Source: a bacterium
GTDB lineage: Bacteria > CAIJMQ01 > JAADFP01
NCBI GenBank assembly: GCA_027021085.1
Contig: JALUVB010000287.1
Span: 1 to 5,544 of the forward strand
Direction of reading: 5' to 3'
Length of the DNA: 5,544 bases
Under the pieces are notes generated by a model. It was given only the letters and a program-made list of their open reading frames with translations. It had not been told where the DNA came from and searched no databases. This document shows, piece by piece, positions 216 to 5,544 of this stretch (positions are counted from its first letter, which is position 1; the number at the start of each line of letters is the position of its first letter). Position numbers and translations under genes: made by a program.

Positions 216-2290
216 TACCAAAATTAACCTCAGATTTAATTTTAGTTCTAACTATAATTAAGAAGTACCTAAAAAATAATTCACAACTAATAGCAAAGAT
301 AAACCGAAATTGCTTTTTTATTTTGCTTACTTCTCTCTTAGCCTTCCCCCTATTTGCCCAGGATAACTGGTGGAATAAAAACTGGGAATGCAGGAGGAAA
401 GTAGCAATCCCCTCTCTTCTGGGGAAATGGGAGTATTACACCCGCACGGCGGCAGTATACTTTCCCAACGGCGGAAAAGTGAGAAAAAACGGAGAAGATA
501 TCCGGGTGATAAATGAAAAGGGCAAAGAAATACCTTCTAAAGTAATCTACTCCGTCCCTTATAGATATTCTCTGGTGGCTTTCCCCCTTAGAGACAATTC
601 TTCTACCTATTACATCTACTATGGGAATCCCCGGGCACCTGCACCCGGCTACTCCTGGAAACTCCAAGCCGGGCTTACCCTGGAAACCAGGAGAAAACCG
701 CCCGGGAGAGCAGACAACTGGAAGGAAATGGAAAGACTAATCTCCCGCAGTAAGATTGTTTACGGCAAAGGCTTCCGGACCCAAATCTTCGATGGGTATA
801 ACCCCTACGGCCCCTCGGATAATTATCTCAGTATTTACAGGGGATTCTTTTATGCTCCTGTCAACGGAAAATACGGCTTTGCCACTGTCTCAGATGATGC
901 CTCATTTCTTTTTATAGATAGCAAGCTGGTAGCTCAATGGCCTGGATTCCATGGGGCAGGAAGAGGAAGACGGGCAGAACACCGGGGGGAAATATACCTT
1001 AAAGCAGGGGTGCACCTGATTGAATACTACCATATGGAAGGAAGAGGTTCACAGGCCTGTGTGGCTGCCTGGCGGAAACCGGGAGACAGGGAATACAGGG
1101 TGATTAACGAAAGATATTTTCTCCCTGTGACTGTAGGAATATTGCAAGGATATGAAAAGAGAGACAATCCTTACCCGGCAGACTTCTACTACACACTGCT
1201 GGACAACCTGTACCCGGAAAAAGGAATTCTCACCCGGCTGAAATTTTCTTCCCCCTCCTCCGGCTTCTTAGAATGGGAACTGGACGACGGCATGAAAATG
1301 ACCGGGGTAAAGGAATTCACCCATGTTTACCTGGAATTCAAAAACTACCGGGTGAAATTAAAAAGAAAAGTGGATGTGGTGAAATTAAAAGACGGAAGAC
1401 AATTGGCAGGGTATATTGTCTCCTCCTCCGGGGAAAAAGTTGTGCTAAGGTTAGAAGGCGGGACAGTAGATATCAGCAGAAACGATATAGTGGAAATAAA
1501 AAGTTTCCAGGATAGCATGGAAAGAAAAATCGTACTGCGGGAACCGCTCCCCGGGAATGAAAAAACAGATATGGAAAACTACCTCAAGATAATTTCCCTT
1601 TATCCCCTCTCGGCCCTCTCCGAGAACCAGCTCCGGGTGCTTTTGAACTTTTATGAAAGCTTAAAAAAAGAAACCGAGGCAGCAAAGGTCATCTATTTCC
1701 TGGCAAAGAAGAGCAAGGGAAGTAAACGCTGGAATTATCTCCTCACCCTGGGGAATTTCTACCAGAAACAGGGAGATAATACAAAAGCACTTCTTACCTT
1801 CCAGAACCTGGCCAGGGAAGCAACCGGTAGGGAAAAATGCGAAGCTTTGCTCAAAACGGGGGAAATATTTTTGGAAAAGGGAGAGTTTGAAAAAGCAAAA
1901 GAAATCTTTACCGGTATAGAGAAAGAATATTCGGGAGAATGGAAAAGAAAGGCAAAACTCGGCCTGGGAGATATTTATTTCTACCAGGGAGAATTTGAAA
2001 AAGCAGAAAGCATCTATAAAAACTCCGCTAAAGAAAAACCAGGCCATCCGGAGGGTTACTACCTGCAAAGAGCCGAGTACTACTTAAAAACAAAAGACAG
2101 GGAACCCCTAAAATCCACCTTAAAAGAATGGGGAGACGAATATCCCCTTTCCAGGCTGAAATTTATTCCCTATTACCGGGGATGGGTTTACTGGCTGGCA
2201 AAGGACTACAGCAAAGCACAAAAGGAATGGAGACTCTTAAAAGAATATGGAAAGAGCCCATTACAGGGAAAAGTAAATAGTAAACAGTGA
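212..2290 (+). CDS. Exported multidomain protein: DUF2341-like, PA14-like, PKD-like and TPR repeats
   Basis: This 692-aa protein is probably periplasmic or surface-exposed. The start is fixed by the ATGA overlap and a GGAAGAGG site (200-207). No alternative start codon lies between it and the hydrophobic core, so the signal peptide has an unusually long, AT-rich N-region (about 33 aa) before the core at residues 34-48, with likely cleavage near LFAQ (47-50). Residues 53-145 look like DUF2341 (WWNKNW start, YYGNP at 136-140). Residues about 180-300 resemble PA14, a carbohydrate-binding beta barrel, with the SDDAS motif at 227-231. Residues 345-385 look PKD-like (WELDDG...HVY). Residues 387-432 form a small beta unit (VKLKDGRQLAG). 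TPR-like helical repeats run from about 508 to 685. The family knowledge suggests glycan or surface binding plus protein assembly; the actual role is unknown. The last five residues (VNSKQ) and the stop come from an intergenic heptamer repeat, so the native C-terminus may have been altered. Confidence 0.85.
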   Translation: MIPKLTSDLILVLTIIKKYLKNNSQLIAKINRNCFFILLTSLLAFPLFAQDNWWNKNWECRRKVAIPSLLGKWEYYTRTAAVYFPNGGKVRKNGEDIRVINEKGKEIPSKVIYSVPYRYSLVAFPLRDNSSTYYIYYGNPRAPAPGYSWKLQAGLTLETRRKPPGRADNWKEMERLISRSKIVYGKGFRTQIFDGYNPYGPSDNYLSIYRGFFYAPVNGKYGFATVSDDASFLFIDSKLVAQWPGFHGAGRGRRAEHRGEIYLKAGVHLIEYYHMEGRGSQACVAAWRKPGDREYRVINERYFLPVTVGILQGYEKRDNPYPADFYYTLLDNLYPEKGILTRLKFSSPSSGFLEWELDDGMKMTGVKEFTHVYLEFKNYRVKLKRKVDVVKLKDGRQLAGYIVSSSGEKVVLRLEGGTVDISRNDIVEIKSFQDSMERKIVLREPLPGNEKTDMENYLKIISLYPLSALSENQLRVLLNFYESLKKETEAAKVIYFLAKKSKGSKRWNYLLTLGNFYQKQGDNTKALLTFQNLAREATGREKCEALLKTGEIFLEKGEFEKAKEIFTGIEKEYSGEWKRKAKLGLGDIYFYQGEFEKAESIYKNSAKEKPGHPEGYYLQRAEYYLKTKDREPLKSTLKEWGDEYPLSRLKFIPYYRGWVYWLAKDYSKAQKEWRLLKEYGKSPLQGKVNSKQ

Positions 2291-2315
2291 ATAGTAAGCA
2301 GTGAATAGTGAATAG
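2273..2315 (+). repeat. Heptamer tandem repeat, cluster 1 (6 units)
   Basis: Six consecutive 7-bp units follow the pattern GTRAAYA: GTAAATA, GTAAACA, GTGAATA, GTAAGCA, GTGAATA, GTGAATA. The first units lie inside the 692-aa gene and provide its stop at 2288-2290. Similar heptamer tracts are common intergenic clutter in many uncultured bacterial genomes (recollection). Confidence 0.9.
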
Positions 2316-2319
2316 ATGG

Positions 2320-2389
2320 TTAGTACCCTAGTATCTTGGTAATCCTGGTTTCCTGCCCGCCTGTCATATCTGCGAAAGCAGGTATCCAG
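2320..2389 (+). repeat. 70-bp direct repeat, copy A, ending in a hairpin
   Basis: It aligns without gaps to 2457-2526, with about 10 differences by eye. Most of the differences are transitions. It begins with 8-9 bp GGTATCYT-like units and ends in the GTCAT-hairpin-ATCCAG element. Both copies follow a heptamer tract, so the duplicated object is heptamer tract plus this block. Confidence 0.85.
2363..2389 (+). repeat. GNRA-loop hairpin repeat, copy 1
   Basis: GTCAT, then the arm ATCTGC (2368-2373), loop GAAA, arm GCAGGT (2378-2383), then ATCCAG. The stem has 6 bp, including one T-G wobble. Flanks and loop type match the copies at 2500-2526 and, inverted, 3255-3281. There is no following T-tract, so it is not a typical Rho-independent terminator. 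Confidence 0.85.
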
Positions 2390-2392
2390 GAT

Positions 2393-2420
2393 TTTAGACC
2401 GTAGACTTTAGACTATAGAC
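2393..2420 (+). repeat. Second heptamer family, NNTAGAC x4
   Basis: Four exact 7-bp units: TTTAGAC, CGTAGAC, TTTAGAC, TATAGAC. It lies between the two 70-bp direct repeats. The unit differs from the GTRAAYA family but has the same 7-bp period. Confidence 0.85.
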
Positions 2421-2430
2421 TGGGGAAGCA

Positions 2431-2452
2431 GTAAACAGTGAACAGTGAATAG
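2431..2452 (+). repeat. Heptamer tandem repeat, cluster 2 (3 units)
   Basis: GTAAACA, GTGAACA, GTGAATA plus a closing G. A degenerate unit, GGAAGCA, precedes it at 2424-2430. It sits directly before copy B of the 70-bp repeat, in the same order as cluster 1 before copy A. Confidence 0.88.
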
Positions 2453-2456
2453 GGGT

Positions 2457-2526
2457 TTGGTATCCTGGTATCTTGGTAATCCTGGCTTCTTGGCCACCTG
2501 TCATGCCTGCGGAAGCAGGTATCCAG
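2457..2526 (+). repeat. 70-bp direct repeat, copy B, ending in a hairpin
   Basis: Second copy of the block at 2320-2389. Its tandem start is clearer: GGTATCCT, GGTATCTT, GGTAATCCT, GG. The hairpin at 2500-2526 reads GTCAT, GCCTGC, loop GGAA, GCAGGT, ATCCAG. Together with 2291-2430 it fills the gap after the PA14/TPR gene, and I see no gene in that gap. Confidence 0.85.
2500..2526 (+). repeat. GNRA-loop hairpin repeat, copy 2
   Basis: The arms 2505-2510 (GCCTGC) and 2515-2520 (GCAGGT) enclose a GGAA loop. The stem has six pairs, one of them a G-T wobble. Compared with copy 1 the arm changes keep pairing, and the loop stays GNRA. Confidence 0.85.
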
Positions 2527-2552
2527 TAAAGCAGTGAGTAGCGAGTAGTTAG
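2526..2552 (+). repeat. Heptamer tandem repeat, cluster 3 (degenerate)
   Basis: GTAAAGCA (8 bp), GTGAGTA, GCGAGTA, then a broken GTTAG. It starts on the last base of hairpin copy 2. Its G-rich units GTGAGTA and GCGAGTA reappear in cluster 4 inside the hicBA cassette, which links the two places. From 2553 to 2611 nothing is recognised beyond a C-rich run at 2567-2583. Confidence 0.75.
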
Positions 2553-2611
2553 GGGGGAATAGATTCCTGCCCGCCTGCCCCCTCGCCACTAGATTCATTA
2601 ATGTATAAACT

Positions 2612-2683
2612 GAATAACGGCAAAGCTAAGTTGCGCAGGTGAGAACCAACAGAATAGCGGTCAGGTGGAACGATTTGTTAGCG
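2612..2683 (-). other. Candidate attC recombination site 1, end of hicBA cassette
   Basis: Read on the - strand, the R'' core is CGCTAAC (2683-2677) and the R' core is GTTATTC (2618-2612); each has two mismatches to RYYYAAC/GTTRRRY. On the + strand, AAC (2616-2618) is followed after 6 nt by GCT, exactly as in the other three sites. The other arm has AAC-GATTT-GTT, like site 4. The hicA stop lies 2 bp from the core. The central stem is poor by eye, so this is the weakest of the four sites. It would be the last site of the array, with resident DNA to its left. Confidence 0.5.
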
Positions 2684-2684
2684 G

Positions 2685-2873
2685 CTACTTAATTGGTTTT
2701 ATCCCAAGGTCCTTGCATATTTTCTTAGCAAGAATATCTTTAATCTCAGAATGTCTTGGAATTGATGATCGTTTATTCAAAACCGGATTATGCCACCATG
2801 AATGCTTGCTACCTTCTCTCAATAATTCACATCCTTGAGCACGAAGATATTTTAAAAGAGCATTCCTTTTCAT
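2685..2873 (-). CDS. hicA: HicA family toxin (mRNA interferase)
   Basis: A 62-aa protein of the HicA mRNA-interferase family, which has a dsRBD-like fold and degrades mRNA, stopping translation in the cytoplasm. It matches the family along its full length: N-terminal MKRNALLKYLRAQGC, the glycine-histidine catalytic region REGSKHSWW with H24 at the position of the catalytic histidine, then SSIPRHSEI and C-terminal CKDLGIKP. The length is normal. It starts with ATG inside the hicB stop (ATGA, 2870-2873), so it is translationally coupled to its antitoxin. Its TAG stop (2685-2687) sits 1 bp from attC site 1, the usual tight packing of cassettes. No disruption is visible; it should be active unless HicB is present. 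Confidence 0.92.
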   Translation of the reverse strand: MKRNALLKYLRAQGCELLREGSKHSWWHNPVLNKRSSIPRHSEIKDILAKKICKDLGIKPIK

Positions 2874-3082
2874 ACAGCAATTTTTTCTTCCCTAAATCCA
2901 CTGCCAACCGCAGAGAGAGCTTCTTGGCGATTAAACTCTAAGGCTTCTTTTAAAGTAATTTTAAGAGTTTCCAATAATTCTTCATAGGTTTTCTCCTGAC
3001 AATTTACCCCTGGGACCTCTTCAATCCAGCCAATCCAGCAGTCATCTTCCTTTTTTATCACAGCGGTATATTCTTTATTCAT
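2870..3082 (-). CDS. hicB: HicB family antitoxin
   Basis: A 70-aa antitoxin that binds and blocks HicA. It shows the HicB partial RNase-H-like fold: YTAVIKKEDDCWIGWIEEVPGVNCQEKTYEELLETLKITLKEALE, with the typical 'PGV...T.EE' motif. It is the short form. No ribbon-helix-helix or HTH segment follows residue 50, so any autoregulation would have to come from an unrecognised surface or another protein. The ATG is preceded by a strong GGGAGGGAG site. It is the first gene of the operon, with a consensus promoter about 70 bp upstream, and overlaps hicA by 4 bp. The antitoxin-first order differs from the hicA-first order of many hicAB loci. Confidence 0.92.
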   Translation of the reverse strand: MNKEYTAVIKKEDDCWIGWIEEVPGVNCQEKTYEELLETLKITLKEALEFNRQEALSAVGSGFREEKIAV

Positions 3083-3149
3083 GGTACTCCCTCCCTTCTA
3101 AATAGTTATTACCTCTACCTTTTTTTATATCATTTCAACTATCATCTAA

Positions 3150-3178
3150 GTTATAAATTAAAAAAAGAGGGTTGTCAA
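3150..3178 (-). promoter_or_regulatory. Sigma70-like promoter of hicBA
   Basis: On the - strand: -35 TTGACA (3178-3173, perfect), 17-bp spacer (3172-3156) containing a T7 tract, -10 TATAAC (3155-3150, 5/6). The leader to the hicB start is about 60 nt and holds a spaced inverted pair ATAGTT/AACTAT that could bind a regulator (inference). Confidence 0.8.
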
Positions 3179-3208
3179 ATTTCTTCTGTAATTTTTGCTG
3201 AGCAGAAG

Positions 3209-3253
3209 GGAAACAGTGAACAGTAGCGAGTAGCGGGTAGTGAGTAGCGAGGG
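3209..3253 (+). repeat. Heptamer tandem repeat, cluster 4 (about 6 units)
   Basis: Units: GGAAACA, GTGAACA, a truncated GTA, GCGAGTA, GCGGGTA, GTGAGTA, GCGAGGG. It lies upstream of the hicBA promoter, inside the predicted cassette, and is followed immediately by the hairpin at 3255-3281, giving the same tract-then-hairpin order as at 2273-2526. Confidence 0.82.
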
Positions 3254-3254
3254 G

Positions 3255-3281
3255 ATGGATTCCCGCTTTCGCGGGAATGAC
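3255..3281. repeat. GNRA-loop hairpin repeat, copy 3 (inverted, GC-rich arms)
   Basis: ATTCCCGC (3259-3266), TTTC, GCGGGAAT (3271-3278): a perfect 8-bp stem. On the - strand it reads GTCAT-TCCCGC-GAAA-GCGGGA-ATCCA, the same flanks and loop type as copies 1 and 2 but with CCGC/GCGG replacing CTGC/GCAG. The form resembles the widespread 'attcccg...cgggaat' repeats such as Neisseria dRS3 (recollection). A half copy, GTCATGCCTGCG, lies at 3318-3329. Confidence 0.85.
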
Positions 3282-3344
3282 AAGAAAAAGTAGGAAAGAT
3301 AATCAACCAGCCTGCGCGTCATGCCTGCGTATGGGTTTTTCTGG

Positions 3345-3421
3345 GGTTAACGACCAAGCTCACCTGCTGGTATCGACGCCAAAAGGCGGCGGTACCAGTT
3401 TGCTGTATTGAATTGTTAGAT
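3345..3421 (-). other. Candidate attC recombination site 2, end of protease cassette
   Basis: On the - strand, R'' is ATCTAAC (3421-3415, perfect consensus) and R' is GTTAACC (3351-3345, one mismatch). On the + strand, AAC-GACCAA-GCTCA (3349-3362) matches site 3 exactly. The central stem pairs 3367-3380 with 3385-3398 (13 of 14, one A-G mismatch, loop AAAA). Its tip CGACGCC/GGCGGCG is identical to that of site 3. The extra T after GCTG (3406) is shared with sites 3 and 4, although the outer arms here pair poorly. The protease stop lies 1 bp beyond the core. Confidence 0.75.
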
Positions 3422-3422
3422 T

Positions 3423-3818
3423 TTATACTATTGAAAATACTTTATTAGGATAATCAATTTTTAAGGTGAAATTATTTAAAAAGCTTTTAACCCCCAATAA
3501 AGGAATATGCAAATTCGGCATGAAATCAACCAAAACATTTTCTGTTGAGAAACCAAACGCTCTTATGCAAACAGTATGGCTGTATGCTACAGTTGTACCA
3601 TTACCAGTCCTTATCCTTTTCTGATGGCCCGACTGTAGATTATGACCTAAAGGGTGGGCAAAAGATGCTGGTAGAGCACATTCATCTGCCCCAGTGTCGA
3701 TTAATGCATACACATTTATTTCCTTTTGATTCTCTGGATTTATTATCGTAACGGGAAGATAGGGACGTGCTACATCACCGGGGCGGGTTATAATAAAAGG
3801 ATAATTTTCAATCAACAT
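3423..3818 (-). CDS. Retropepsin-like aspartic protease (clan AA)
   Basis: A 131-aa protein with the single active-site motif of retroviral-type aspartic proteases: hydrophobic YALIDTGADECALP with D41 as catalytic aspartate. A flap-like GNGTTV follows, and near the C-terminus PLLGVKSFLNNFTLKIDY matches the family's 'LLG..FL..f.l.iDy' signature. One DTG per chain means it must dimerise to be active. There is no signal peptide or membrane segment, so it is cytoplasmic. It starts at ATG 3818, overlapping the preceding gene by 11 bp, with only a weak binding site, so translation is probably coupled. TAA at 3423-3425 abuts attC site 2. Neighbouring cassettes are all TA modules, so a toxin-like or quality-control role is inferred, not shown. 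Substrate unknown. Confidence 0.85.
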   Translation of the reverse strand: MLIENYPFIITRPGDVARPYLPVTIINPENQKEINVYALIDTGADECALPASFAHPLGHNLQSGHQKRIRTGNGTTVAYSHTVCIRAFGFSTENVLVDFMPNLHIPLLGVKSFLNNFTLKIDYPNKVFSIV

Positions 3819-4005
3819 AGTAAATGTGTACTACATCTTTATCGGGGACATAAAGGAGAAAGGGGTTCTGAATGCCCTTTTTTCTTGCCTCTTCTAATGC
3901 TTCAGCTGGGGTATCTCCAGCTCCAACAATGGTATTATCTTCGGCACTCTTTATTGCAACGTACTCACCATAATATTTGTCGGAATTAACTAATACTTTT
4001 TCCAT
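3808..4005 (-). CDS. DUF5678-like small protein, partner of the aspartic protease
   Basis: A 65-aa protein when started at ATG 4005. This start has GGAGGGG 7 nt upstream. A GTG at 4020 would add five residues (MEGKI) made from the binding site itself, and lies about where transcription should begin. The sequence YYGEYVAIKSAEDNTIVGAGDTPAEALEEARKKG, then NPFLLYVPDKD, fits my memory of the DUF5678 family: a short beta-hairpin with 'G.tp.eAleeA' helix and a 'P.l.yVP' strand. Function of the family is unknown. The gene is first in the cassette, overlaps the protease gene by 11 bp, and occupies the place an antitoxin holds in the neighbouring modules. It may bind, inhibit or present substrate to the protease (inference). 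Confidence 0.75.
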   Translation of the reverse strand: MEKVLVNSDKYYGEYVAIKSAEDNTIVGAGDTPAEALEEARKKGIQNPFLLYVPDKDVVHIYYVD

Positions 4006-4025
4006 AATTTTCCCCTCCACGTTTT

Positions 4026-4034
4026 AGTATACCA
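4026..4034 (-). promoter_or_regulatory. Extended -10 promoter of the protease cassette
   Basis: On the - strand TGG-TATACT: -10 TATACT (4031-4026, 5/6) with the extended TGn at 4034-4032. No good -35 is found at 16-18 bp. It lies within 50 bp of the attC site 3 core and sets a leader of about 15 nt before ATG 4005. Confidence 0.6.
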
Positions 4035-4066
4035 TAAGAAATCATTTTATTGCATTAGTTTTCTTA

Positions 4067-4142
4067 ATCTAACGACCAAGCTCAGCGACTGGGGCCGACG
4101 CCGCAGGCGGCGGTAGCCGTTCGCTGTAGCGCTTTGTTATCC
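4067..4142 (-). other. Candidate attC recombination site 3, end of vapBC cassette
   Basis: This is the best site. On the - strand, R' is GTTAGAT (4073-4067, perfect GTTRRRY) and R'' is GGATAAC (4142-4136, two mismatches). On the + strand, AAC (4071-4073), 6-nt spacer, GCT-CAGCGA (4080-4088) pairs with TCGCTG-T-AGC (4121-4130), 5-nt spacer, GTT (4136-4138). The unpaired T4127 is a single extra base in the L'' arm, as attC sites require. The tip is CGACGCC/GGCGGCG with loop GCA. The vapC stop TAA lies inside the R'' core. Confidence 0.8.
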
Positions 4143-4508
4143 CCTTTGAGATATATAATTAATACTCATTGCAGATGAGACCAGCCTCAATTTTTCATCC
4201 AGGGTCCAAATGGGTACATCTGTCAGAATAGCTGATGCAAGAAGATTCACATCAATATAGCCAAGCCCTTTACCCATCAATGCATTGCTTTCTATAAACT
4301 GTAGCACCTCATCATGCTCGGGTGATATAGCCATAGGAAGAGACTGAAGTAAAGAAAGTATTTCATCCCGGTTCTTTATGCTTCCACATGCAAGTTCACC
4401 AATGATAAAAGGATGACAAACTACCTCTCCTTTGTATAATAAATGCTCAAGATGCGGATTACCATCGCGAAGATGCGATACCCAGACAGATGTGTCAACA
4501 AGAACCAC
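4137..4508 (-). CDS. vapC: VapC family PIN-domain ribonuclease toxin
   Basis: A 123-aa PIN-domain Mg-dependent RNase. VapC toxins cut tRNA or rRNA and stop translation. The expected acidic residues are all present: D5 in VLVDTSVW, E38 in IGELACG, D86 in GYIDVNLLASA, and D104 in WTLDEKL. Length is normal and no frameshift is seen, so it looks active. The start is GTG at 4508, one base after the vapB stop (TAA-A-GTG), with GGGG about 9 nt upstream in the end of vapB; a start further inside would remove D5. The TAA stop (4139-4137) is part of the attC site 3 core, so the reading frame and the recombination site share bases. It forms an operon with vapB. Confidence 0.93.
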   Translation of the reverse strand: MVLVDTSVWVSHLRDGNPHLEHLLYKGEVVCHPFIIGELACGSIKNRDEILSLLQSLPMAISPEHDEVLQFIESNALMGKGLGYIDVNLLASAILTDVPIWTLDEKLRLVSSAMSINYISQRG

Positions 4509-4509
4509 T

Positions 4510-4707
4510 TTATTTATCCCCTACTCTTCTGCGAGGAATCATCTTTAATGCCTTTTCTGTCCCTCCAAGCTTGGCCAGTCTTTTACTGCTTTCTATAGCA
4601 ATCAAAGCTTCTAACCCAAGTTTTACCAAAGATGTTTTTCCCTTGACGCCAGTCAATTTTGATGCTTTTTTAAGCAGTTCGTCTTCAATATTTATTGTTG
4701 TTCTCAT
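4510..4707 (-). CDS. vapB: VapB family antitoxin
   Basis: A 65-aa antitoxin of the VapB type that matches RTTINIEDELLKKASKLTGVKGKTSLVKLGLEALI. The N-terminal beta strand plus two helices form a ribbon-helix-helix DNA-binding unit, and the basic C-terminal tail (about 45-65) would wrap VapC. The ATG has a strong AAGGAGGAG site. It leads the operon, 1 bp before vapC. A near-consensus promoter with a perfect 7-bp inverted repeat in its spacer lies directly upstream, a fitting operator for VapB-VapC autorepression (inference). Normal length, no damage seen. Confidence 0.92.
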   Translation of the reverse strand: MRTTINIEDELLKKASKLTGVKGKTSLVKLGLEALIAIESSKRLAKLGGTEKALKMIPRRRVGDK

Positions 4708-4742
4708 AATCTCCTCCTTATATACTCAAAATTATATGTATT

Positions 4743-4771
4743 ATTATGCATGATATATGCATACCTGTCAA
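4743..4771 (-). promoter_or_regulatory. vapBC promoter with embedded operator-like palindrome
   Basis: On the - strand: TTGACA (4771-4766), 17-bp spacer, CATAAT (4748-4743, 5/6). A perfect inverted repeat TATGCAT-5 bp-ATGCATA spans 4745-4763, covering the spacer and half of the -10. A protein bound there would block RNA polymerase. Confidence 0.82.
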
Positions 4772-4782
4772 GTGGAATTTGG

Positions 4783-4841
4783 AGATAACAGTCAAGCTCA
4801 GCGATGGCAGAACGCCGTCCGCTGTAACACATTTGTTAGAT
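4783..4841 (-). other. Candidate attC recombination site 4, end of phd-relE cassette
   Basis: On the - strand, R'' is ATCTAAC (4841-4835, perfect) and R' is GTTATCT (4789-4783, two mismatches). On the + strand, AAC-AGTCAA-GCTCAGCG (4787-4803) resembles site 3. CAGCG (4799-4803) pairs with CGCTG (4820-4824), followed by the extra T4825. The inner stem is ATGGC/GCCGT with one bulged C and loop AGAAC. It is the shortest of the four (59 bp). The relE stop is about 20 bp away. Confidence 0.75.
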
Positions 4842-4861
4842 GATTTATTAATTTTTGTTTT

Positions 4862-5155
4862 TCATATTTTCTTTATACGTTGCAGCATTTCCTTATAAAC
4901 TTCCGCATCCCGGCGCATACCGACTTTTAGTACTAAAACTTTAATCGTGTTTTTTTCTATTCTATATATAACACGATAGTGAGATATTTTTAATTTCCAG
5001 TATCCTTTTAATGGATTACGTAGAGGAGAGCCGTACTTCTCAGGGGCAATGGTAAGTTTTTTGTAGATAGTTTTAAGAATGATGGTGCGGGTTTTTTTAT
5101 TGATTTTTTTGAAATCTTCCTCAATGACGAGAGGATGAACTTTTATCTTCCACAT
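4862..5155 (-). CDS. relE: RelE/ParE family toxin
   Basis: A 97-aa RelE/ParE-superfamily toxin. Typical features are WKIKVHPLVIEEDFKKI at the start, LKGYWKLKISHYRVIYRIE in the middle and LVLKVGMRRDAEVYKEM at the end, with conserved Y/R residues and the closing 'R...VY'. Members either cut ribosome-bound mRNA (RelE) or poison gyrase (ParE). The conserved basic and tyrosine residues and the Phd/YefM-type partner favour RelE, but sequence alone does not decide. ATG 5155 follows a GGGGGG site by 6 nt; a nearby ATG at 5159 is out of frame. It lies 11 bp after phd. The stop TGA is at 4862-4864. Confidence 0.9.
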   Translation of the reverse strand: MWKIKVHPLVIEEDFKKINKKTRTIILKTIYKKLTIAPEKYGSPLRNPLKGYWKLKISHYRVIYRIEKNTIKVLVLKVGMRRDAEVYKEMLQRIKKI

Positions 5156-5166
5156 TCATCCCCCCG

Positions 5167-5436
5167 TTATTTTAAAAGTGCCTCAATGTCAATATAATCT
5201 TTTCCCTTGCTGCTTTTATACCGTGCATCGGCGATGAATCCAAGCACTAAATCCTCAGCAGTTTCTAAAAGATTCTGGATATGTTCATATTCTTCGTTGG
5301 ACATAAGAACAGCGGTCGGTTTGTGCCTTTTTTCAATGATAACAACTCCGTCGTGCGCTTTTTTTAGCACCTTCTCGATTCCGGAACGCAGCTCGGAAAC
5401 TCCCACCAATGTTGTATTTTCCTTAATGGTAATCAT
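5167..5436 (-). CDS. Phd/YefM family antitoxin
   Basis: An 89-aa antitoxin of the Phd/YefM family. It shows the N-terminal DNA-binding fold (VGVSELRSGIEKVLKKAHDGVVIIEKRHKPTAVLMSNEEYEHI), and the C-terminal part from about residue 57 (ETAEDLVLGFIADARYKSS...IDIEALLK) is the toxin-binding tail. ATG 5436 is preceded by GGAGGTGGG, a near-perfect binding site. First gene of the operon, 11 bp ahead of relE. Phd proteins repress their own promoter. Here a 7-bp direct repeat ATGTCAA lies in the promoter (5465-5471 and 5477-5483), a possible binding site (inference). The protein looks complete. Confidence 0.9.
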   Translation of the reverse strand: MITIKENTTLVGVSELRSGIEKVLKKAHDGVVIIEKRHKPTAVLMSNEEYEHIQNLLETAEDLVLGFIADARYKSSKGKDYIDIEALLK

Positions 5437-5454
5437 ATTCCCACCTCCAGATAA

Positions 5455-5483
5455 AATATACCATATGTCAAAGAAAATGTCAA
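5455..5483 (-). promoter_or_regulatory. Sigma70-like promoter of phd-relE
   Basis: On the - strand: TTGACA (5483-5478, perfect), 17-bp spacer, TATATT (5460-5455, 5/6) with an extended TGG. A second TTGACA is nested in the spacer (5471-5466), forming a 12-bp-spaced direct repeat. Confidence 0.8.
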
Positions 5484-5544
5484 TATATGATACAGGTTAA
5501 TTGGCAGTTAACTCGTCACCTTATTTGTTTTTTCATCTAATGGC

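What the first reader, a model, noticed from the sequence alone, without database searches (positions are those of the whole stretch)
2612..5544. Integron cassette array made of toxin-antitoxin-type modules
Four two-gene modules, all on the - strand, each end next to an imperfect palindrome with AAC...GTT cores, constant arm spacing (AAC-6 nt-GCT in all four) and similar sequence. Cassette-like intervals are 716, 722 and 733 bp. Genes point the normal way for attC orientation. Established knowledge: sedentary chromosomal integrons carry TA cassettes thought to stabilise the array. Inference: intI and attI lie beyond the right edge, or this is an attC cluster lacking an integrase.
Basis: partly seen in the sequence, partly recalled or inferred. 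Interest (0 to 1): 0.85.

Follow-up and report, generated by a model that had tools for sequence, protein, structure and literature searches.

The report
Integrase-free integron arrays with copied leaders
The window holds a run of bacterial gene cassettes (mostly toxin-antitoxin and likely phage-defence genes) joined by genuine integron recombination sites but with no integrase nearby; the surprising part is that this lineage carries several copies of what looks like the cassette landing site with its own promoter, scattered over the genome without an integrase gene.

Summary
Four two-gene modules on the - strand each end at an attC site. An attC covariance model trained without these sites calls all four in the predicted orientation (E 7.5e-8, 1e-4, 8e-4, 0.017). 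The array continues on contig C140, which shares 127 exact bases with the window's end: at least three more cassettes (TIR effector, Stk2-like, unknown) and two more model-called attCs. It then meets host genes. No intI lies there, elsewhere in this 94%-complete MAG, or in six relatives of its class. So this is a CALIN (cluster of attC sites lacking an integrase), not a complete integron. Three modules are toxin-antitoxin pairs; the fourth is an aspartyl-protease/DUF5678 pair. Five copies sit at arrays in this genome (one, before HicBA, has lost the GTT); a congener's best copy lies 5' of its only attC. A second family has its own leader with the same layout, only in genomes with attCs. I read these as duplicated attI/Pc platforms without integrase: inferred, not tested.

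The parts
2613..2682 (-). attC site 1 (after HicA), array 3' end; R' GTTATTC; poorly paired arms
   Evidence: R3 held-out E=1e-4; arms
2685..2873 (-). HicA-family toxin gene
   Evidence: PF07927 E=7.8e-10
2870..3082 (-). HicB-like antitoxin gene
   Evidence: weak UPF0150/DUF1902 matches, below cut-off; position beside hicA
3115..3197 (-). Leader copy Lb: attI/Pc-like; -35 TTGACA 3178-3173, -10 TATAAC 3155-3150; the G|TT core is changed here (GAGG)
   Evidence: R2 leader model 69.8 bits (training member); pairwise homology; geometry
3200..3345 (.). Dispersed intergenic repeat between the two array units
   Evidence: more than 40 matches genome-wide
3346..3420 (-). attC site 2 (after the protease gene); followed by GTTAACCCCAGAAAA, also found after the C293 attC
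   Evidence: R3 held-out E=8e-4; C293 sequence
3423..3818 (-). Clan AA aspartyl protease gene
   Evidence: PF13975 E=2.1e-8; TIGR03698 E=1.3e-10, below its cut-off
3808..4005 (-). DUF5678 gene, overlapping partner of the protease
   Evidence: PF18929 E=1.2e-10; pair recurs elsewhere
4068..4141 (-). attC site 3 (after VapC); R' GTTAGAT
   Evidence: R1 E=6.5e-4; R3 held-out E=7.5e-8
4137..4508 (-). VapC-like PIN-domain toxin gene
   Evidence: PF01850 E=1.4e-7
4510..4707 (-). VapB antitoxin gene
   Evidence: PF09957 E=1.7e-15
4743..4771 (-). Promoter-like site of the vapBC cassette (TTGACA-17-CATAAT)
   Evidence: 11 of 12 consensus matches
4784..4840 (-). attC site 4 (after ParE/RelE)
   Evidence: R3 held-out E=0.017; not called by R1
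4862..5155 (-). ParE/RelE-family toxin gene
   Evidence: PF05016 E=5.7e-9; TIGR02385 at cut-off
5167..5436 (-). Phd/YefM antitoxin gene
   Evidence: PF02604 E=6.8e-11
5455..5483 (-). Promoter-like site of the phd-parE cassette (TTGACA-17-TATATT)
   Evidence: 11 of 12 consensus matches
5535..5544 (-). Start of putative attC site 5 (continues to C140:189); R' is ATTAGAT; not called by the models
   Evidence: sequence; contig overlap

Best explanation
The window holds most of an integrase-free integron cassette array (CALIN). Shown: cassettes in one orientation ending at attC sites; at least seven cassettes from window 2613 to about C140:3728; no intI in the array, its flanks or the MAG; and homologous leaders at array 5' ends with a consensus promoter and a homology edge at a G|TT core. 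Inferred: each leader is a copy of an attI landing site with an outward cassette promoter (Pc). Cassettes were inserted at G|TT by an integron integrase that is now lost, not binned, or supplied in trans. The Pc drives the first cassettes, while toxin-antitoxin cassettes use their own promoters and stabilise the array. Duplication of attI-plus-flank segments made further array units, in tandem (G004; window and C163 of this genome) and at other loci, after which cassette content turned over.
For: attC identity: R1 (plasmid attCs only) calls window 4068-4141, C140 1804-1886 and 2789-2846, C163 5246-5312 and 5765-5819, all on the coding strand; real cassette attCs outside its training (dfrA12, carb2, dfrA17) score 39, 25 and 21 bits, the range of these sites. 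Held-out R3 calls all four window sites. Continuation: 127 nt exact overlap with C140. Leaders: most leader pairs score above all 60 of their shuffles, and many of those alignments run up to within a few bases of the core, though several stop 13-31 nt short of it; promoters of TTGACA-N17-TATAAT type lie 24-37 nt before the core. R2 finds five leaders in G000 at E<1e-16, next 0.036; in congener G001 its best hit (4.5e-11) is on the same strand 1.7 kb 5' of the only attC found there. Second family: a different leader, TTGACG-N17-TATCAT-33 nt-GTT, two copies in each of G003 and G004 at attC loci and none in G005/G006, which lack attC hits. Duplication: in G004 C10 the end of the flanking gene is copied just before the second leader.
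Against: No recombination shown. The five G000 leaders were found by looking 5' of arrays, so only the G001 hit and the second family are independent. Lb lacks the GTT core; two of three G001 leaders have no detectable attC downstream. Sites 1, 2, 5 and 6 have poorly paired arms and may be dead. Whole-genome leader scans scored only 150 of about 500 candidates in G000. MAGs are 64-96% complete, so an unbinned intI cannot be excluded.
Confidence: 0.72

Rival explanations
1. Cassettes integrated at attG-type secondary sites: an integrase acting in trans inserted cassettes at ordinary G|TT positions, and insertions just downstream of promoters were kept because they are expressed. No attI is involved.
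For: attG insertion is documented (cited in PMC11023631 and PMC12444791). All leaders are promoter-proximal. Arrays lie at several loci.
Against: Leaders are homologous copies, not merely promoters: in the best pairs similarity covers spacer and flanks from about -110 to the core, and two families each have their own copied leader. Independent attG insertions would not share that.
Confidence: 0.17
2. Ordinary chromosomal integrons whose intI is missing only because these are fragmented MAGs.
For: Contigs break at arrays (window end, C293 start); draft genomes overstate CALINs (PMC9024848).
Against: The array 5' ends in C140, C163, C289 and G004 C10 are inside contigs with host or array DNA on both sides and no intI remnant. 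No intI in seven genomes of the class, four of them with attCs. The extra leader copies would still need explaining.
Confidence: 0.15
3. Not integron-related: palindromic terminators or repeats after small gene modules.
For: Several sites fold no better than shuffled DNA.
Against: Held-out and plasmid-trained attC models call them with strand and edges as predicted; sites are confined to these arrays and one contig edge; cores and spacing are attC-like.
Confidence: 0.02

Closest known systems
[quoted passage not shown]
   Same: Two or more attC sites, cassettes in one orientation, no neighbouring intI; described as common in genomes and MAGs (PMC9024848, PMC9668308, PMC12444791)
   Different: Array 5' ends carry copies of a leader that looks like attI plus Pc; I found no such description in the papers read
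Sedentary chromosomal integron with toxin-antitoxin cassettes (Vibrio cholerae superintegron)
   Same: TA cassettes with their own promoters, defence-type and unknown cassettes (PMC11023631; own knowledge)
   Different: No intI; short arrays (1-7 cassettes) at several loci instead of one large array
attG secondary insertion sites (Loot et al. 2024, cited in PMC11023631)
   Same: Cassettes inserted at G|TT away from an integron platform
   Different: Here the insertion points are preceded by homologous, promoter-bearing leader copies
Delta-attI sites in mobile integrons (PMC12901181)
   Same: attI fragments exist in extra copies; delta-attI2 core AATAAAATGTTRRRY resembles the leader ends (e.g. 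AATAAAAAAGGATGTTAGAC)
   Different: Those lie downstream of a cassette gene as fragments; these are 60-130 nt leaders with promoters at array 5' ends

Membership tests
[quoted passage not shown]
   R1 and held-out R3; IntegronFinder's own model was not available
CALIN | No integron integrase next to the attC cluster | tested here: met
   TIGR02249 own genome, none over cut-off
CALIN | Cassette genes end at the attC sites in one orientation; core GTTRRRY at R' | tested here: met
   R' varies: GTTAGAT (site 3) fits, sites 1, 2 and 4 fit GTT but not all of RRRY, site 5 is ATT
CALIN | Cassettes can be excised or inserted by an integron integrase | not testable with these tools
   needs a recombination assay
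Complete integron / sedentary chromosomal integron | intI gene with the IntI-specific insertion, adjacent to attI | tested here: not met
   No hit over cut-off in G000-G006; the two G000 Xer proteins lack the roughly 32-residue insertion; no remnant at arrays. Unbinned DNA not searchable
attI site with Pc | Conserved sequence ending at the G|TT insertion point of the first cassette | tested here: met
   the Lb copy lacks GTT and one second-family copy reads ATT
attI site with Pc | Outward promoter | tested here: inconclusive
   consensus match 9-12 of 12 in the ten leaders measured; transcription not measured
attI site with Pc | Location next to intI | tested here: not met
Type II toxin-antitoxin modules | Toxin and antitoxin domains in adjacent genes | tested here: met
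   VapBC and Phd/ParE clear; HicA clear, HicB weak; protease/DUF5678 pair is not a known TA

The most novel reading that the evidence does not exclude
A distributed integron: in this class the single intI-attI-Pc platform has been replaced by several integrase-free attI-Pc landing pads, in tandem and at separate loci, each building and expressing its own short array of toxin-antitoxin and defence cassettes, served by an integrase in trans or now frozen.
Probability: 0.35. Interest if true: 0.8.

Novelty: new variant of a known kind. Interest (0 to 1): 0.58.

Why it matters
CALINs are usually seen as remnants of integrons or as cassettes landed at random sites. If attI-Pc leaders can be copied without intI, a genome could keep and express several cassette arrays at once, and CALINs would split into those with a landing pad and those without. 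That can be tested directly by looking for repeated sequences ending at G|TT at the 5' end of CALINs in other lineages. It also adds a little-sampled bacterial class, with defence-type cassettes, to the known range of integron cassettes.

Tried and rejected
Rfam at E<=1 gave nothing in the window. The two tyrosine recombinases found with PF13495/TIGR02249 were rejected as IntI because both lack the IntI insertion and look like XerC/XerD. Empty-site test: in the named relative (Caldisericota MAG M_MaxBin.041) the TPR gene is followed by a different conserved gene, so gene order differs and no clean empty site was obtained. Single-strand folding alone does not separate sites 1, 5 and 6 from shuffles. 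Leader searches in viral contigs and plasmids and array searches in plasmids and phages found nothing relevant. I considered that C163 or C289 might be contaminant contigs; both carry the genome's dispersed repeats. One Pfam call failed because of a wrong frame and was not repeated.

Full report
Setting. The window is contig C287 of a 1.93 Mb, 307-contig MAG, 94% complete. Its closest named relative is a MAG labelled Caldisericota bacterium M_MaxBin.041. Only seven genomes of the class are held: G000 (this one), G001 (same genus), G002 (same family), G003-G006 (a second family).

The array. TAAC-N6-GCT occurs four times, never reached in 200 shuffles. Pfam gives HicA with a weak HicB-like partner, a clan AA aspartyl protease with DUF5678, VapC with VapB, and ParE/RelE with Phd. 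The vapBC and phd-parE cassettes carry the two best promoter-like sites of that strand. The last 127 bases of the window are the first 127 of contig C140, a typical assembly-graph overlap. There the array continues in the same orientation: a 544-aa gene without family match, a 290-aa gene with a Stk2-like match, a 280-aa CAP12/Pycsar-type TIR protein (PDC-S35, E=4.8e-78), two model-called attCs (1804-1886, 2789-2846) and one putative degenerate one (118-189). It ends at a G|TTAGAC core near C140:3728, after which come intergenic repeats and host genes.

attC test. I extracted attCs from annotated plasmid cassettes and built model R1 from 13 of them. R1 alone calls one window site, two C140 sites and two on contig C163, all in the predicted orientation. 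R3, built without window or C140 sites, calls all four window sites. Genome-wide, R3 hits at E<=0.1 in G000 lie in C287, C140, C163 and at the start of C293. C289 carries a further array. On every folded site the strand opposite the genes, which is the one integrases recombine (own knowledge), has the lower folding energy.

No integrase. TIGR02249 finds nothing over its cut-off in G000, although 12 of 98 sampled genomes score over it. The two Xer-like proteins lack the roughly 32-residue IntI insertion. tblastn of six IntI proteins against array loci finds nothing credible.

The leader. Reading array 5' ends in C140, C163 (two), C289 and the window showed a shared block: a TTGAC-N17-TAT promoter followed 30-37 nt later by G|TT, where the first cassette starts. 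The window copy, before HicBA, has GAGG in place of the core. Pairwise alignments confirm homology above shuffles for most pairs; many end within a few bases of the core, some earlier. In C163 a 64-nt repeat at 89% identity begins exactly at the TAAC of the core. Model R2 from these five finds no other strong copy in G000, but in G001 its best hit lies 1.7 kb before that genome's only attC on the same strand. Two weaker G001 leaders have no attC behind them.

Second family. Comparing attC loci of G003 and G004 showed another repeated leader, unrelated in sequence but with the same layout and the same stop at GTT (ATT in one copy). A search finds two copies in each of G003 and G004, all at attC loci, and none in G005 or G006, which have no attC hits. 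The G004 C10 array and the G003 C32/C91 arrays sit between orthologous flanks, and in G004 the second leader is preceded by a partial copy of the flanking gene's end, which suggests platform multiplication by segmental duplication.

Interpretation. The array is a CALIN. The leaders behave as duplicated attI sites with a Pc promoter. This is inferred from anatomy and copy pattern; neither insertion nor transcription was tested. attG-type insertion downstream of promoters is the main rival but does not predict homologous leaders. An ordinary integron with an unbinned intI remains possible.

Known versus new. CALINs, archaeal and MAG arrays, TA cassettes in chromosomal integrons, anti-phage cassettes, attG sites and delta-attI fragments are all described (PMC9024848, PMC9668308, PMC12444791, PMC11023631, PMC12901181). 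I found no description of several attI-Pc-like leaders per genome without intI, but the literature search covers open-access papers only.

Noticed in passing
window 3423-4005; L157, L162, L174, L171: The DUF5678/clan AA aspartyl protease pair recurs: of 22 DUF5678 loci checked, four (this one included) have a DTGA-type protease frame beginning at or just after the DUF5678 match, a fifth has one further off. A candidate two-gene unit of unknown role, possibly TA-like.
   Followed up: partly
window 3346-3420; L011 1804-1886 (also 2613-2682 and L011 118-189): Left and right arms of these attCs do not match. Sites 2 and 6 look like reciprocal hybrids of two arm types (CAGC.../GCTG and CACCTG/CAGGTG); the left arms of sites 1 and 6 pair best with the right arm of site 5. 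Decay or arm exchange; unexplained.
   Followed up: partly
window 5544 / C140:127; C293:1: The contig C287 ends 4 nt past the predicted cassette crossover point, and C293 starts at an attC. This would fit strain variants with different cassette neighbours; reads were not available.
   Followed up: no
window 2272-2570 and 3200-3330: Dispersed intergenic repeats (CAGTGAACAGTGAATAG and GTCATGCCTGCGGAAGCAGG types) with more than 40 matches in the MAG flank the array units.
   Followed up: no
window 3346; L110 (C293) 66-100: The 3' ends of two arrays are followed by the same GTTAACCCCAGAAAA(A/T)CC(C)ATACGCAGGCATGA sequence, perhaps the right side of the ancestral landing site.
   Followed up: partly
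L012 (C163) 5246-9130; L013 (C289) 119-2010: Further arrays of the same genome hold an AbiEii/DUF6036-like nucleotidyltransferase with a small partner, PDC-S11-type proteins, a GmrSD/SspE-like fragment and, 5' of a leader, another Phd/RelE-like pair cut by the contig end (the last pair judged by eye only).
   Followed up: partly
L109 (G001 C103) 8190-9827: The first cassette behind the G001 leader is a 545-aa protein with an ATPase-like N-terminal sequence (by eye) and no PADLOC or NCBIfam match.
   Followed up: no
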